Below are positions 5,065-25,020 of a DNA stretch of 40,678 nucleotides, piece by piece (positions within the stretch are counted from its first letter, which is position 1; every line of letters starts with the position of its first letter). Both the position numbers and the translations under genes were made by a program. Origin of the DNA: a virus. The stretch spans positions 1-40,678 of the IMG/VR virus record IMGVR_UViG_3300048580_000535. One strand, written 5' to 3'. The notes under the pieces are model-generated. The model had not been told where the DNA came from. It was given only the letters and a program-made list of their open reading frames with translations, and made no database searches.

Positions 5065-5919
5065 ATGAATGACAATTATAAAAAATTAGATAAATGTGTT
5101 AGTATGAGTGAAGCTCAAAGGGTGTTTGGGTTTCACGCTAATGGGGGTGGTGCTATAAAGATAAGAAAATTAGCGTTAGAATGTGGATTTGATTTAAATA
5201 TTTATAAATTACGTAAAAAAAAATATTGTTTAAATTGTAATAAACAATTACATCGTGGTCAATATAAATTTTGTTCTAATAGTTGTTCGGCAATTTTAAA
5301 TAATAAAAATAGAAATATAACAGATGAAACAAAAAATAAAATATCTAAAAAATTAAAACATTTTTTTACGTTAAAATATCCTGAAAATGTAATAACCCCG
5401 ACACATAAAGAATGTGTGATATGTAATAAATCTTTTAGTGTTGTTAAATGTAAAAGTGGGCGTTACTCTAGAAGTAAAACTTGCTCAAGTGAGTGTAATA
5501 TTGAACTAAGAAGAATGAATGGTAAGGATTCTATGGGTAAGGTTATAAAGGAAGGTAGACATATTGGATGGACAAGTCGAAATATTGTTAGTTACCCTGA
5601 AAAATTTTTTATGGGGGTTTTAGAAAAACATAATATAAAATATCAACATAATTATCCAATATTAAAGAGACATTTAGGTGTTGATGAACCTTATGGTTAT
5701 TTTTTAGATTTTTTTATTGAAGAAAAAAAAATTGATTTAGAGATAGATGGTAAACAACATTTTAGTAGGAAAGAACACGATAAAATAAGGGATGAAATTT
5801 TAAAAAATAATAATTTTAATGTATATAGGATTGATTGGAAAAATATTAACACTAAAAAAGGTAAAAAATATATGGAATTAGAGATTAGTAAATTTTTACA
5901 TTTTTATAATATGTGTTGA
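5065..5919 (+). CDS. EDxHD (Vsr-like) homing endonuclease with zinc motifs
   Basis: 284 residues. The N-terminal half has two zinc-binding-like motifs (CLNCNKQL...FCSNSC around 56-75, and CVICNKSF...CSSEC around 118-144). The C-terminal half is a PD-(D/E)XK/Vsr-type nuclease: SYPE with E179, 'GYFLDFFI' with D215, 'LEIDGKQHF' with E226, D228 and H232, and HDKIRDE with D239. This matches the EDxHD family, for which I-Bth0305I is the type. It lies within the tRNA cluster, and only 10 bases after its TGA stop comes an orphan 3' tRNA half. The likely reading is that it inserted into, and destroyed, a tRNA gene. Its codons are very A-rich even for this phage. Confidence 0.85.
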   Translation: MNDNYKKLDKCVSMSEAQRVFGFHANGGGAIKIRKLALECGFDLNIYKLRKKKYCLNCNKQLHRGQYKFCSNSCSAILNNKNRNITDETKNKISKKLKHFFTLKYPENVITPTHKECVICNKSFSVVKCKSGRYSRSKTCSSECNIELRRMNGKDSMGKVIKEGRHIGWTSRNIVSYPEKFFMGVLEKHNIKYQHNYPILKRHLGVDEPYGYFLDFFIEEKKIDLEIDGKQHFSRKEHDKIRDEILKNNNFNVYRIDWKNINTKKGKKYMELEISKFLHFYNMC

Positions 5920-20357: not shown

Positions 20358-23129
20358 ATGAGTAAGAATGGACTTCAATTAGCGAGTGATTTAAAGTATT
20401 ATTTAGATTATTCAAGATGGATTGACGATGAAAATAGAACTGAGACTTGGGAAGATTCGGTTAATAGGGTTATGAATATGCACAGAGAAAAGTATTCACA
20501 ATTTTTATCAAACCCAAGATTTGTGGAATTATTCGAAAAGGCTGAAAATGCCTATAAAGAAAGGTTGGTATTAGGTTCTCAAAGAGCTTTACAGTTTGGG
20601 GGTGAACCAATTATTAGACATAATGCCAGATTGTATAATTGTACGGCGACTTATGTAAATAGAGTTAGAAGCTTCCAAGAGATAATGTATTTGTTATTGT
20701 GTGGATGTGGTGTTGGATTTTCGGTTCAATATAAACATATTAATAAATTACCTAATTTAGTTAAAAGAACTAAAGGTACGAAAACATTTGTGGTACCTGA
20801 TTCAATTGAAGGGTGGAGTGATGCTTTTGGTATTTTAGTATCTTCATATGTTGAAGAAGGGAAAGAAACGCCATTTACCGAGTATCAAGGATATGAAATT
20901 AGATTTGATTTGAGTTTAATTAGACCTGAAGGTGCTATGATTAGTGGTGGATTTAAAGCTCCCGGTCCTGAGGGGTTGAGAAAATCATTATTAAAGGGTG
21001 AGGAATTGATTGAAAGAAATTTAAATCAAGGTGTTAACGTAATGAAACCTATTATGGCTTATGACTTTATTATGTATATGGCGGATGCGGTATTATCTGG
21101 TGGTGTTAGAAGAAGTGCTACTATCTGTTTATTCTCACCGGAAGATAATGAGATGATAAATGCTAAGGTTGGTAATTGGTATTATGAAAATCCGCAAAGA
21201 GGTAGGTCTAATAATTCAGCTGTTATTAATAGAAACACTACAACTAAAGAACAATTTAATAGTATTTTCACATCAATTAAAGATTTTGGTGAGCCAGGTT
21301 TTTATTTTGTAGATGATGAAGATCAAGTAACTAATCCATGTGTGACAAAAGACACTACGGTTATGACGAATGAAGGTGTTTTTACGGTTGAGGATTTAAT
21401 TGGTGTTAAGAAAAAAATTGTTGTAAATGGTGAAGAACATGATATGATGTCTGATGGTTTTTGGAAAACAGGTGAAAAAGATGTTTATAAACTTACAACT
21501 AATAAAGGATATCAGTTAAGATTAACTGAAAATCATAAAGTTTTAACCGTTAATAGTTTAAATGTTGAAACTTGGAAGGAGTTGAAAGATATTAATATTG
21601 GTGATAAAGTTAAATTAAATAAGAATATTGGTTATGTTTGGGGTAATCAAGATAATAGTGAATTTGAAAAAGGTTGGTTATTAGGTAATTTAATAGGTGA
21701 CGGAACTTTCGATAAAGAATCTGCGTTATTAAAATACTGGAATGAAAGTAATGTGAAAGAAATTGCTAAGACTTATTTGAATAATAATTTTAAAACTTAC
21801 CAAGAGTTTTCAGCGGAAGAAAATAATGACGGTATTGTTTCCATTGGAAGTGTTAAATTAAAAGAATTTGCTGATCAATTTGGTGTTAGAAATAATGATA
21901 AATTACCTAATAAAAAATTAGAACAACAATCTTCAAAATTTTATGAAGGATTTATTTCAGGGTTAATTGATGCTGATGGGACAATACATAATGATACTAA
22001 TAAAGGTGATTATAATATTAGATTAAACCAATCAAATGTTGAATTACTTAATATAGTTCAAAGAATGTTATTAAGGTTAGGTATTGTTTCTACACTTTAT
22101 AAAAATAGACGTAAAGAAGGGTTTAGACAATTACCTGACGGTAATGGTGGGTTAAAAGAATATTATTGTAAATCAAATCACGATCTACAAATTAGTAAGA
22201 CTAACGTAAGAGAGTTTAATCAAAGAATTAAATTAAATTCTAAAAAACAATCATTGGTTATTGAAATGTTAGATAAATATAAACCATATTCTGAGTATTT
22301 TAATGATGTTGTTAGTTCTATCGAATATGATGGTTTTGAAGATGTTTACGATGTTAATGTTGAAGATGTTCATAGATTTGATGCTAATGGTATTATTGTT
22401 CATAATTGTGTTGAAATCGGATTATACCCTCAAATTGAAATTAATGATGAAACTGAATATGGGTTTCAAGGATGTAATTTAACTGAGGGTAATGGTGGTA
22501 TGTGTACAACAGAAGATAAGTTTTATGATGCGTGTGAATCTTTAGCTATCTTAGGTACATTGCAAGCGGGTTATGCTGATTTCCCATATTTAGGTGAGGT
22601 AACAGAATCAATTTTCAGGAAAGAGGCATTATTAGGTTGTTCATTTACAGGTTGGATGGCTAACCCACATATTATGATGAATCCTGAAATTCAAAGAAAA
22701 GGTGCTGAAATCGTTAAAAAAGTAAATCAGGAGTTGGCTGAAATTATAGGTATTAATCCAGCGTCGAGAACAACTTGTGTTAAACCTTCTGGAAATGCTT
22801 GTACGACTTTTGATACGAAGATTAAAACTAATATGGGTGATATGACGTTAAATGAAATATTTAATTATTGTTTAGGTGTACAAATAAACCCTAAAACTTT
22901 AATACCTAATAGTTTTACAGAGCCAAATATACCATTACAGGTTTATGATGAAAATAACGACTTAAAGGATATTACTGCGTTATTTTTTAACGGAACTTGT
23001 CAAGTTTTTGAAATTGAGTTTGAGGATGGTAATAGTTATAAATTCACAGAAAACCACAAATTAAAAACAAAGGATGGTTGGAAGTTAGTAAAAGATTTAA
23101 CTGAAAACGATGAAATAATCTCATTTTAA
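20358..23129 (+). CDS. nrdJ: Class II ribonucleotide reductase NrdJ, N part, with cis intein and N half of a split intein
   Basis: 923-residue precursor. N-extein 1-327 has the RTPR-type start and 'GSQRALQFGGEPIIRHNARLYNC95' (active-site Cys). Intein 1 is 328-683 (nt 21339-22406): starts CVTKDTTVM, ends GIIVHN, +1 residue C684; splicing yields QVTNP-CVEIGLYP, the class II motif NPCxEI. Middle extein 684-814 includes 'GFQGCNL' (C706). Intein 2 N half is 815-923 (CTTFDTKIKTNM ... TENHKLKTKDGWKLVKDL ... NDEIISF), then a TAA. The rest is in the gene at 24022. The assembled protein would be 754 residues, close to the 739 of the L. leichmannii enzyme. It makes dNTPs with adenosylcobalamin. Both splicing events are needed for activity. 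Confidence 0.93.
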   Translation: MSKNGLQLASDLKYYLDYSRWIDDENRTETWEDSVNRVMNMHREKYSQFLSNPRFVELFEKAENAYKERLVLGSQRALQFGGEPIIRHNARLYNCTATYVNRVRSFQEIMYLLLCGCGVGFSVQYKHINKLPNLVKRTKGTKTFVVPDSIEGWSDAFGILVSSYVEEGKETPFTEYQGYEIRFDLSLIRPEGAMISGGFKAPGPEGLRKSLLKGEELIERNLNQGVNVMKPIMAYDFIMYMADAVLSGGVRRSATICLFSPEDNEMINAKVGNWYYENPQRGRSNNSAVINRNTTTKEQFNSIFTSIKDFGEPGFYFVDDEDQVTNPCVTKDTTVMTNEGVFTVEDLIGVKKKIVVNGEEHDMMSDGFWKTGEKDVYKLTTNKGYQLRLTENHKVLTVNSLNVETWKELKDINIGDKVKLNKNIGYVWGNQDNSEFEKGWLLGNLIGDGTFDKESALLKYWNESNVKEIAKTYLNNNFKTYQEFSAEENNDGIVSIGSVKLKEFADQFGVRNNDKLPNKKLEQQSSKFYEGFISGLIDADGTIHNDTNKGDYNIRLNQSNVELLNIVQRMLLRLGIVSTLYKNRRKEGFRQLPDGNGGLKEYYCKSNHDLQISKTNVREFNQRIKLNSKKQSLVIEMLDKYKPYSEYFNDVVSSIEYDGFEDVYDVNVEDVHRFDANGIIVHNCVEIGLYPQIEINDETEYGFQGCNLTEGNGGMCTTEDKFYDACESLAILGTLQAGYADFPYLGEVTESIFRKEALLGCSFTGWMANPHIMMNPEIQRKGAEIVKKVNQELAEIIGINPASRTTCVKPSGNACTTFDTKIKTNMGDMTLNEIFNYCLGVQINPKTLIPNSFTEPNIPLQVYDENNDLKDITALFFNGTCQVFEIEFEDGNSYKFTENHKLKTKDGWKLVKDLTENDEIISF
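21339..22406 (+). mobile_element. Cis-splicing intein with LAGLIDADG endonuclease in NrdJ
   Basis: 356 residues. Splicing motifs: N-terminal Cys, 'GYQLRLTENHKVLT' (block B), 'GFEDVYDVNVEDVHRFDANGIIVHN' (blocks F and G), followed by +1 Cys. Homing part: 'GWLLGNLIGDGTF' (D448) and 'GFISGLIDADGTIH' (D538, D540), the two LAGLIDADG repeats, so it is a full-length, mobile-type intein. Insertion is exactly before the catalytic Cys of NPCxEI, a strongly conserved site. Confidence 0.95.
22800..23126 (+). mobile_element. N half of split intein 2 (109 aa)
   Basis: Starts at C815 directly after PSGNA; block B 'NSYKFTENHKLKT'; ends near ELTENDEIISF at the classic split point and is stopped by TAA. The C half begins 900 bases downstream at 24022. 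Confidence 0.9.
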
Positions 23130-23164
23130 TCGAGCTTTTTTGTTAAACCATCATATTTATATTT

Positions 23165-24010
23165 ATGGATGGTTTAACAAAAAATATACCTTATGTATAT
23201 ATCATTAAAAATAAGAGTACTGGTTTGAAATATATCGGTGCTAAATATTCTAAAAATTCTAACCCAAATAATTTTTGGGTTAATTATTTTACATCATCAA
23301 AACTAATCCATAAATTAATTGAGTTTTATGGTGTTAATGATTTTGAATTTAAAATAATAAAAACATTTAATAGTGTGTTTGATACATTACAATATGAACG
23401 TAAATTAATATCTTTATCATTATTAAAAGATGATTATTTAAATCTACATTCTAATTTTGTTGTTGAATCGGAAGAAGAATATGAGTTTAACCAAATTAAA
23501 ATGAAAAAAGTTAGAAGTTTTTATGGTAATTTATCGTATTTAATGAAATTAGGTTTTCACGGTTTTACTGATGAGATTAGATATAAAGTTTGTAGTGATG
23601 GTGGTAAAATGGCTGCGATTGTAAATAAATTAAATAAAAAGGGTCTTTTTAATAAGGAAAATATTACTAATATACATAAAAAATTAAAAGAAAAACAATT
23701 GAGTGCGTATTACGATCCATCATTACGATTTGATATATGTAGTAAGGGTGGTAAGAATGGGTTTTTTAGTGATAATTATAGGGTGAAAAATAACTTAACT
23801 GAGGACGAAATGAGGGGGAGACAAAGTGATAGGGGTAAAAAAGGTGGTGTTAAGAATAAGGGATTTAAATGGTATAATGATGGTGTAAATGTCTACAAAT
23901 ACATGCCAGAACAAATAAAAGAACTTCCATTTGATGAATTTTTAAAACAAAATAATCAATTTAAAAGAGGTCCTGGAAAACTCTTAAAGAGTATAAAATT
24001 AAAAAAATAA
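23165..24010 (+). CDS. Free-standing GIY-YIG homing endonuclease between split-intein halves
   Basis: 281 residues. GIY-YIG signature 'VYIIKNKSTGLKYIGAKYSKN' (about 12-33), a conserved E in 'LQYERKLISL'. The C-terminus 'RGKKGGVKNKGFKWYNDGVNVYKYMPEQI' is the type of DNA-binding tail seen in homing nucleases. It has its own start, with ATATTTATATTT directly before the ATG, and its stop lies 11 bases before the C half of the intein. It probably spreads the intein by cutting intein-free nrdJ. Not related to the GIY-YIG gene at 3103 beyond the nuclease core. Confidence 0.88.
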   Translation: MDGLTKNIPYVYIIKNKSTGLKYIGAKYSKNSNPNNFWVNYFTSSKLIHKLIEFYGVNDFEFKIIKTFNSVFDTLQYERKLISLSLLKDDYLNLHSNFVVESEEEYEFNQIKMKKVRSFYGNLSYLMKLGFHGFTDEIRYKVCSDGGKMAAIVNKLNKKGLFNKENITNIHKKLKEKQLSAYYDPSLRFDICSKGGKNGFFSDNYRVKNNLTEDEMRGRQSDRGKKGGVKNKGFKWYNDGVNVYKYMPEQIKELPFDEFLKQNNQFKRGPGKLLKSIKLKK

Positions 24011-24021
24011 AGAATAAAAAA

Positions 24022-25020
24022 ATGAAAATTAAAAAAATAAGAAAGACTGATGAATATTTCCAAACAGGTGATTTGGAGGTTAAAGATACCCATTCATATC
24101 AATTAGATAATGGGGTTGTTTCACATAATTCTGTACTATTAAAATCACCTTCTGGTTGTCACGGAGACCATGCTCCAAGATACTTTAGGGTAATGCAAAT
24201 TAATAAACAATCTGAAATTGGTAAGTATTTGAATGAAGAACATTCGTATTTGATTGAAGAATCTGTATGGAGTTCTAATAAAACAGATTATGTGGCATAT
24301 ATTCCGGTAATGGCTAATAAGAATGCTAAATTTAAAAAAGATTTAGTTGGTATGAATCAATTAGAAGTGGTTAAAACAATTCAAAACAATTGGGTTGAAT
24401 ATGGGACAAATCACGAAAGAAATGTTCAACCATATTTAAGACATTCAGTTTCTAATACTGTTGAATTGGATTATTCTGATTACGATATGGTAGAAGATTA
24501 TTTATTTAATAATAGATATGATTTCGCGGCGGTATCATTCTTACCTTTAACAGGTGATAAAGATTTCAACCAAGCACCATTCACGTCAGTATTGTCAGGT
24601 GAAGAATTATACGATAAGTATGATGATGCAGCTTTCTTCGCTTCAGGTTTAATTGTTGATGGGTTACATGCTTTCGATGGTAACTTATGGGAAGCTTGTG
24701 ATTATGTAAATAAAAGAGATTTGAAATTACAAGGAACAAGGGTTGAAGGTTTAATTAAGAAAGATTGGATTAGAAGAGCTAAACAATTCGCTAAGAGATT
24801 CTTTAAGGGGGATATTAAAGAAATGATATTATGTCTTAAAGATTTACATTTATATCACAAATGGGTTAGAATAAATCGTGAATTAAAACAAAGGGATTTT
24901 GATTTTAATACGGCAATTAAACAACCCGAATATGTTAATATGGATACTATGGGAGCTCAAGCCTGTGCTGCGGGTAGTTGTGAATTACCTGAGTATATGT
25001 TAGAAGCTATGAAAGGATAA
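24022..25020 (+). CDS. nrdJ: NrdJ C part with C half of split intein
   Basis: 332 residues. Residues 1-36 (MKIKKIRKTDEYFQTGDLEV...GVVSHN) are the intein C half, ending in HN, followed by S37. Trans-splicing with the 23126 half joins PSGNA to SVLLKSPSGCHGDHAPRYF, the phosphate-binding 'PSGNAS.L..SSG.H' motif of class II RNR. The C-terminus carries 'QACAAGSCELPEYM', a C-x4-C pair like the C731/C736 redox pair of RTPR, which re-reduces the active site. So this gene is inactive alone; the complete enzyme needs both polypeptides to join. Confidence 0.93.
   Translation: MKIKKIRKTDEYFQTGDLEVKDTHSYQLDNGVVSHNSVLLKSPSGCHGDHAPRYFRVMQINKQSEIGKYLNEEHSYLIEESVWSSNKTDYVAYIPVMANKNAKFKKDLVGMNQLEVVKTIQNNWVEYGTNHERNVQPYLRHSVSNTVELDYSDYDMVEDYLFNNRYDFAAVSFLPLTGDKDFNQAPFTSVLSGEELYDKYDDAAFFASGLIVDGLHAFDGNLWEACDYVNKRDLKLQGTRVEGLIKKDWIRRAKQFAKRFFKGDIKEMILCLKDLHLYHKWVRINRELKQRDFDFNTAIKQPEYVNMDTMGAQACAAGSCELPEYMLEAMKG

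What the first reader, a model, noticed from the sequence alone, without database searches (positions are those of the whole stretch)
20358..25020. Doubly inteinised, fractured nrdJ with GIY-YIG endonuclease inside a split intein
One class II RNR is encoded as two polypeptides with three mobile parts: a LAGLIDADG cis intein at NPCxEI, and a split intein at PSGNA|S whose N and C halves flank a free-standing GIY-YIG gene. The reassembled enzyme is 754 residues with intact C-x4-C tail. Fractured genes with split inteins and inserted endonucleases are known from marine viral metagenomes (the NrdJ-1/gp41-1 type); a double arrangement, with a cis intein in the N part, is unusual.
Basis: partly seen in the sequence, partly recalled or inferred. 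Interest (0 to 1): 0.85.

Follow-up and report, generated by a model that had tools for sequence, protein, structure and literature searches.

The report
Phage enzyme gene broken by inteins
An uncultured phage carries one DNA-building-block enzyme (ribonucleotide reductase) whose gene is interrupted by two self-splicing protein elements, one of which breaks the gene in two around a DNA-cutting gene; related phages show every step of this invasion, up to one enzyme encoded in three separate pieces.

Summary
nrdJ (20358-25020) consists of an N part with a 356-aa LAGLIDADG cis intein at NP|C and a 109-aa split-intein N half; a 281-aa GIY-YIG endonuclease gene; and a C part beginning with a 36-aa C half at PSGNA|S. 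The spliced product would be 754 aa. Viral contigs hold the whole allele series: uninterrupted nrdJ (~92-94% identical), cis intein only, split intein+GIY only, and both (window). A frameshift or assembly artefact is excluded. The cassettes look mobile: purifying selection, a co-conversion-like tract, intein identity decoupled from extein identity. The GIY gene sits behind a strong RNA hairpin that hides its start codon and holds a phage promoter-like motif, as in T4 I-TevI and Aeh1 mobE. The kind, "fractured genes", is known. Relatives go further: four inteins in one nrdJ (L028/L029), and nrdJ broken by two split inteins into three polypeptides (L107, L111, L116/L117, L097). I found no report of the three-piece state in the papers held, but the founding paper was not readable. 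Splicing is inferred, not shown.

The parts
20358..21338 (+). nrdJ N-extein, mature residues 1-327
   Evidence: tblastn alignment to uninterrupted alleles L002-L023; RTPR and PHROG 367 matches
21339..22406 (+). cis intein, 356 aa, at NP|C, with LAGLIDADG endonuclease (motifs at 21678 and 21951), block B TENHK at 21525, ends VHN|C
   Evidence: 88.8% identical intein at the same site in L017/L018; endonuclease region dN/dS 0.094
22407..22799 (+). nrdJ middle extein, mature residues 328-458, ends KPSGNA
22800..23126 (+). split intein N half (IN), 109 aa, C1, block B TENHK at 23046, stop at 23127-23129
   Evidence: conserved in independent fractured loci; dN/dS 0.13 vs L015
23137..23183 (+). RNA hairpin (inverted repeat TTTTTTGTTAAACCATC/GATGGTTTAACAAAAAA); its 3' arm covers the GIY-YIG start codon
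   Evidence: z -5.7 to -6.1 vs dinucleotide shuffles; also in L015, L028, L032, L045, L041
23154..23161 (+). TATTTATA, phage promoter-like motif in and next to the hairpin loop, 11 nt before the ATG
   Evidence: TATTTAT at 10-15 nt before ATG: window 6 vs 0.1 expected, G002 13 vs 0.37, G001 17 vs 0.37
23165..24010 (+). free-standing GIY-YIG (SegE-like) homing endonuclease gene, 281 aa, between the two intein halves
   Evidence: Pfam PF19835 and PF01541 above cut-off; model matches I-TevI catalytic domain, prob 1.00; invariant residues in 9 homologues
24022..24129 (+). split intein C half (IC), 36 aa, ends SHN|S
   Evidence: TIGR01443
24130..25020 (+). nrdJ C-extein, mature residues 459-754 plus stop, with C-x4-C tail
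   Evidence: 92-96% identical in most matched uninterrupted alleles

Best explanation
This is a phage class II ribonucleotide reductase gene invaded by two mobile inteins 393 bp apart (extein coordinates). The first is an ordinary bifunctional cis intein: it excises itself from the N polypeptide and its LAGLIDADG domain cuts empty nrdJ alleles at NP|C. The second is a split intein: its halves, at the end of the N polypeptide and the start of the C polypeptide, associate and trans-splice the two parts into one 754-residue enzyme, while the free-standing GIY-YIG endonuclease gene between them cuts empty alleles near PSGNA|S, so that the cassette IN-endonuclease-IC is copied by recombination. The endonuclease is probably held silent on read-through nrdJ mRNA by a hairpin that hides its start codon, and made from a later transcript starting at a promoter inside the hairpin. 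Shown by sequence: anatomy, splice points, natural empty and single alleles, recurrence, purifying selection, recombination signatures, hairpin. Inferred: splicing in cis and trans, endonuclease cutting, timing of expression.
For: Anatomy and families. Four natural allele states: empty at both sites, cis only (L017/L018), split+GIY only (L015), both (window), exact at the nucleotide level. Recurrence of the split intein at the same RNR loop in many contigs. Catalytic positions kept in all aligned IN and IC (C1, T..H, HN|S/T). dN/dS 0.05-0.33 in all parts. Co-conversion-like tract around the cis intein: window vs L017 85.3% inside, 96.6% outside, p 2.6e-10. Intein identity 47-65% while extein identity runs 20-85%. 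GIY-YIG fold like I-TevI. Hairpin in 6 fractured loci with the start codon in the stem and a genome-wide promoter-like motif in the loop. T4 and Aeh1 precedent for this control (PMC2988022).
Against: No experiment: neither splicing nor cutting has been seen for these sequences. The IC half alone scores only just above or below family cut-offs. The idea that the hairpin is also an operator mimicking the homing site failed a rank test (p 0.20-0.33). Expression timing rests on a motif, not on RNA data. The GIY subfamily's catalytic arginine was not mapped.
Confidence: 0.82

Rival explanations
1. Sequencing or assembly artefact: one continuous intein with an internal endonuclease, broken by frameshifts.
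For: Metagenome contigs can carry frameshifts; L033 does have a GIY gene broken over three frames.
Against: The stop after IN, separate start of the GIY gene and MKIKKI-like start of IC recur in unrelated contigs with different frame relations; matching loci occur in separate assemblies (L028/L029, L116/L117); the spacer carries a structured hairpin in six loci.
Confidence: 0.02
2. Fractured gene without trans-splicing: the two RNR parts associate non-covalently as in Aeh1 nrdA-a/nrdA-b, and the intein halves are relics.
For: Aeh1 NrdA works as two chains after mobE insertion (discussed in PMC3653736).
Against: Both intein halves keep every splicing residue and low dN/dS; IN and IC are conserved together across lineages, including contiguous versions.
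Confidence: 0.08
3. The split intein splices but the cassette is no longer mobile: the GIY-YIG gene is inactive and the element is inherited vertically.
For: Homing-cycle theory predicts decay after fixation; L033 has a broken GIY gene, L095 has no endonuclease.
Against: GIY dN/dS 0.32 between window and L015; most near relatives lack the cassette although exteins are 96-100% identical around the site, so it is not fixed.
Confidence: 0.15

Closest known systems
Fractured genes with split inteins and free-standing endonucleases (Dassa et al. 2009, doi 10.1093/nar/gkp095; not held, known from citations and memory)
   Same: Conserved phage enzyme broken in two by a split intein with an endonuclease gene in between; RNR genes among the targets.
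   Different: Here the endonuclease is GIY-YIG, a LAGLIDADG cis intein interrupts the same gene, and natural empty and single alleles are at hand.
Aeromonas phage PX29 gp17A/gp17B (GU396103)
   Same: Split intein with a SegE-like GIY-YIG endonuclease between the halves, annotated so in GenBank; GIY 41% identical over 113 aa.
   Different: Terminase gene, not RNR; endonuclease fused in frame to the C part; no second intein seen in the stretch.
NrdJ-1 split intein (PDB 8ubs)
   Same: Class 1 split intein in a class II RNR with Cys1 and Ser+1; half lengths 110/46 (PMC11766414) vs 109/36 here.
   Different: Different insertion site and no detectable sequence match from the window's IN. Relatives L111 and L097 carry the NrdJ-1 kind in addition.
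T4 I-TevI, segB and Aeh1 mobE expression hairpins (PMC2988022)
   Same: Late promoter inside a hairpin that hides the endonuclease's RBS or start on read-through mRNA.
   Different: Here it sits between split-intein halves; the motif is TATTTATA in this phage, TATAAATA in L028.
Multi-intein genes: haloarchaeal MCM (PMC10643990), Campylobacter phage IBB_35 nrdA (PMC3322345)
   Same: Several inteins at neighbouring sites of one essential gene.
   Different: Those are not described there as split inteins; here cis and split inteins combine.
Klebsiella phage phiKp_21 nrdA (LC768485)
   Same: Isolated phage with an RNR gene fractured at the corresponding loop by a related split intein.
   Different: Class I RNR; HNH-like ORF between the halves; annotated only as nrdA plus two hypothetical proteins.

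Membership tests
Fractured gene with split intein and free-standing endonuclease | One enzyme coding region broken in two polypeptides, exteins colinear with an intact homologue | tested here: met
   Uninterrupted alleles align through the junction
Fractured gene with split intein and free-standing endonuclease | Intein N half at the end of part 1 and C half at the start of part 2, with splicing residues | tested here: met
   C1, TENH, HN|S
Fractured gene with split intein and free-standing endonuclease | Separate endonuclease ORF between the halves | tested here: met
   GIY-YIG ORF 23165-24010 in its own frame
Fractured gene with split intein and free-standing endonuclease | Trans-splicing takes place | not testable with these tools
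   Needs expression
NrdJ-1 split intein | Sequence relationship of IN to NrdJ-1 | tested here: not met
   No NrdJ-1 hit for the window's IN or the 7-member profile; L111's other intein does hit 8ubs
NrdJ-1 split intein | Insertion at NPC|SEI | tested here: not met
   Window split site is PSGNA|S; the NPC|SEI site is taken from relatives L111/L097/L107 and, for NrdJ-1 itself, from memory
Class II (adenosylcobalamin) RNR, RTPR type | Match to RTPR family and structure | tested here: met
   TIGR02505 E 1.8e-32, though under the whole-protein cut-off because the gene is broken; uninterrupted allele hits 1L1L only, E 9.7e-20
GIY-YIG homing endonuclease | GIY-YIG domain and fold | tested here: met
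   PF19835 and PF01541 above cut-off; I-TevI 1mk0, prob 1.00, TMt 0.65
LAGLIDADG cis intein | Splicing domain with two LAGLIDADG motifs | tested here: met
   PF14890, PF14528; motifs at 21678 and 21951
I-TevI-like autorepression (operator resembles homing site) | Operator in the promoter hairpin matches the target site beyond chance | tested here: not met
   Rank test over six hairpin loci p 0.20 and 0.33; a shared AAACC core is seen but not significant

The most novel reading that the evidence does not exclude
Phage nrdJ is a hot spot where split and cis inteins pile up step by step. In some relatives (L107, L111, L116/L117, probably L097) two different split inteins, one at NPC|S/C (NrdJ-1-like in L111) and one of the window's kind at PSG|T, break a single enzyme into three polypeptides that must be rejoined in order by two trans-splicing reactions that do not cross-react; the window is an intermediate state (one cis, one split) of that series, with the endonuclease gene under hairpin control.
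Probability: 0.6. Interest if true: 0.78.

Novelty: new variant of a known kind. Interest (0 to 1): 0.62.

Why it matters
The phage population holds every state of the same gene (empty, cis only, split only, both), most of them at high extein identity. That makes the origin of split inteins, and the question of whether neighbouring inteins help or hinder each other's spread, directly testable with natural alleles. The relatives add contiguous versions of the split intein, endonuclease swaps (GIY-YIG to HNH) with a kept C-terminal region, four inteins in one gene and, most strikingly, a natural three-piece enzyme. Such pairs are also a natural source of split inteins that have had to be mutually orthogonal inside one cell.

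Tried and rejected
The single-protein scan with the GIY-YIG sequence found no relative in viral contigs; a two-row alignment did. Operator/homing-site mimicry: the hairpins share an AAACC-like core with the KPS codons upstream of the insertion, but shuffles and rank tests do not support it. NrdJ-1 membership was tested and rejected for the window's intein. The frameshift artefact was rejected. The Dassa 2009 paper was not held, so its list of endonuclease families and loci could not be checked. No PDB chain matches the GIY alignment by sequence. A T4-like TATAAATA late promoter was tested in the window and two relatives and is not the main enriched motif there; TATTTAT is. No paper on natural three-piece trans-splicing was found in the searches run, which is weak evidence of absence.
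Full report
Observation. Window 20358-25020 encodes one ribonucleotide reductase in two polypeptides. The N part (923 aa) is N-extein 1-327, a 356-aa cis intein (21339-22406), middle extein 328-458, and a 109-aa intein N half followed by a stop at 23127-23129. A 281-aa GIY-YIG ORF follows (23165-24010). The C part (332 aa) is a 36-aa intein C half (24022-24129) and C-extein 459-754. Joined exteins are 754 aa. Pfam, NCBIfam and PHROGs name each part as stated. The record is a 40,678-base virus fragment, G+C 29%, with baseplate, dUTPase, replicative helicase and head-protease genes.

The splice points are exact. Viral contigs hold uninterrupted nrdJ about 92-94% identical to the mature 754 aa (L002, L003, L004, L007, L008, L010, L011, L013, L014, L019-L023; L016 as two overlapping matches in different frames). 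L017 and L018 carry the cis intein only (88.8% identical, same site). L015 carries the split intein and GIY gene only (IN 62%, GIY 57%, IC 72%). The window carries both. At the nucleotide level ...GGAAATGCT|TCNGT... runs straight through, with no insertion at the split site in 15 aligned alleles. The first eight bases after the split site in the window (TCTGTACT) differ from its nearest empty relatives (TCAGTTTT) and equal those of the fractured L028, as short co-conversion would leave.

Evidence of mobility. Window and L017 are 96.6% identical over the exteins but 85.3% over the 218 aligned bases around the cis intein site (p 2.6e-10), and the intein itself is 88.0% identical: intein plus flanks have another history than the rest of the gene. 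dN/dS is 0.09 in the LAGLIDADG region (vs L017), 0.13 in IN and 0.32 in the GIY gene (vs L015). Over 19 loci the intein identity to the window stays at 47-65% while the C-extein identity ranges from 20 to 85%, so the intein appears to move between distant RNRs.

Control of the endonuclease. Between the IN stop and the GIY gene lies a hairpin (z about -6) whose 3' arm contains the start codon. Similar hairpins with other sequences lie at the same place in L015, L028, L032, L045 and L041, not in L031, L033 or L046. The loop region holds TATTTATA. TATTTAT stands 10-15 nt before ATG far more often than expected in the window (6 vs 0.10) and in two 98-109 kb relatives (17 and 13 vs 0.37), so it is probably this phage group's promoter element. 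This is the layout described for I-TevI, I-TevII, I-TevIII, segB and mobE (PMC2988022). The further idea that the hairpin is also a binding site copied from the target was tested and not supported.

Endonuclease. The model of the GIY protein (pLDDT 75.5) finds the I-TevI catalytic domain (prob 1.00, TMt 0.65, E 5e-3). In L053 and, by Pfam or motif, L091, L097, L107, L109, L111, L113 and L075 the same place is held by an HNH-type protein with a related C-terminal region: nuclease exchange with a kept DNA-binding part is the likely reading. L030 has a 56% identical GIY gene standing free behind an intact nrdJ of another type.

Relatives. The split intein's site comes in two versions 6 nt apart: PSGNA|S (window, L015, L028/L029, L031, L032, L033, L045, L047, L106) and PSG|T (L034-L038, L041, L046, L053 from a Flavobacteriales MAG, L091, L095, L103, L107-L111 and others). 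Contiguous versions of the same intein in one ORF occur in L093, L104 and L114/L115; L095 is split without an endonuclease. A second intein in the same gene is found in L028/L029, L033, L045, L075 and L106. L028/L029 hold four: a 299-aa LAGLIDADG intein at LYN|C, a 136-aa mini-intein at LL|C, a 325-aa HNH intein at NP|C, and the split one. L107, L111 and L116/L117 have split inteins at both NPC|S/C and PSG|T, so that one nrdJ is encoded by three polypeptides with one or two endonuclease genes; L097 adds a cis intein at QF|C and an intein ending at LL|C that is cut by the contig end. The NPC|S intein of L111 matches NrdJ-1 (8ubs, E 2e-16). IN halves of the two split inteins in one gene are 22-35% identical, compatible with non-cross-reacting pairs. 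L114/L115 are the reverse of the window: split at NPC|S, contiguous at PSG|T.

Known or new. The kind is known: fractured genes (Dassa 2009, cited in PMC3653736, PMC3229294 and PMC11766414; not readable here). A GIY-YIG endonuclease between split-intein halves is annotated in Aeromonas phage PX29 gene 17. An RNR fractured at the corresponding loop occurs, unannotated, in the isolated Klebsiella phage phiKp_21. Several inteins in one gene are known in haloarchaeal MCM (PMC10643990) and in phage IBB_35 nrdA (PMC3322345). From memory, Trichodesmium dnaE combines cis and split inteins. The window is therefore a new variant of a known kind. The three-piece genes among its relatives are the part I could not find described.

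Mechanism. Shown: anatomy, junctions, allele series, conservation, recombination marks, hairpin. Inferred: cis splicing of the LAGLIDADG intein (the +1 Cys is, by the NPCxEI motif and established knowledge of RTPR, the catalytic thiyl cysteine, so splicing should be needed for activity), trans-splicing of the split intein, homing by both endonucleases, late expression of the GIY gene.

Noticed in passing
L111:756-5112, L107:1599-5112, L116/L117:356-5139, L097:3-5025: nrdJ broken by two different split inteins into three polypeptides, with one or two endonuclease genes (HNH, DUF1064-like or MTES_1575-like nucleases).
   Followed up: partly
L028/L029:945-6021: One nrdJ with four inteins: LAGLIDADG cis, mini cis, HNH cis, and split with GIY-YIG.
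   Followed up: yes
L033:4246 and L106:2625: NP|C inteins in two separate contigs end in Arg (TARR|C, VVAR|C) instead of HN|C; how or whether they splice is unexplained.
   Followed up: no
window and L057-L067 (G001, G002): TATTTAT stands 10-15 nt before start codons tens of times more often than expected; the spacing would give nearly leaderless transcripts if it is a -10 element.
   Followed up: partly
L030:4953-6029: Close relative of the GIY-YIG gene standing free, directly behind an intact 885-aa nrdJ of another type.
   Followed up: no
L054 (LC768485.1 Klebsiella phage phiKp_21): nrdA fractured by a related split intein with an HNH-like ORF between the halves; annotated as nrdA plus two hypothetical proteins.
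   Followed up: partly
window 24930-25020 vs L017:6590-6690: The last ~90 nt of nrdJ fall to 76-78% identity among otherwise near-identical alleles; the redox tail is C-x4-C in the window and C-x5-C (CSGPNGC) in L017.
   Followed up: no
L095:4047-4608: Split intein in nrdJ with only 127 nt and no endonuclease ORF between the halves.
   Followed up: no
L055 (NC_031909.1 Campylobacter phage PC14): nrdA fragment with a contiguous mini-intein at the corresponding loop (APTA|TSG), between annotated homing endonuclease genes.
   Followed up: no
window 5065-5919: Another ORF with an HNH endonuclease match (phrog_1271, E 5e-8).
   Followed up: no
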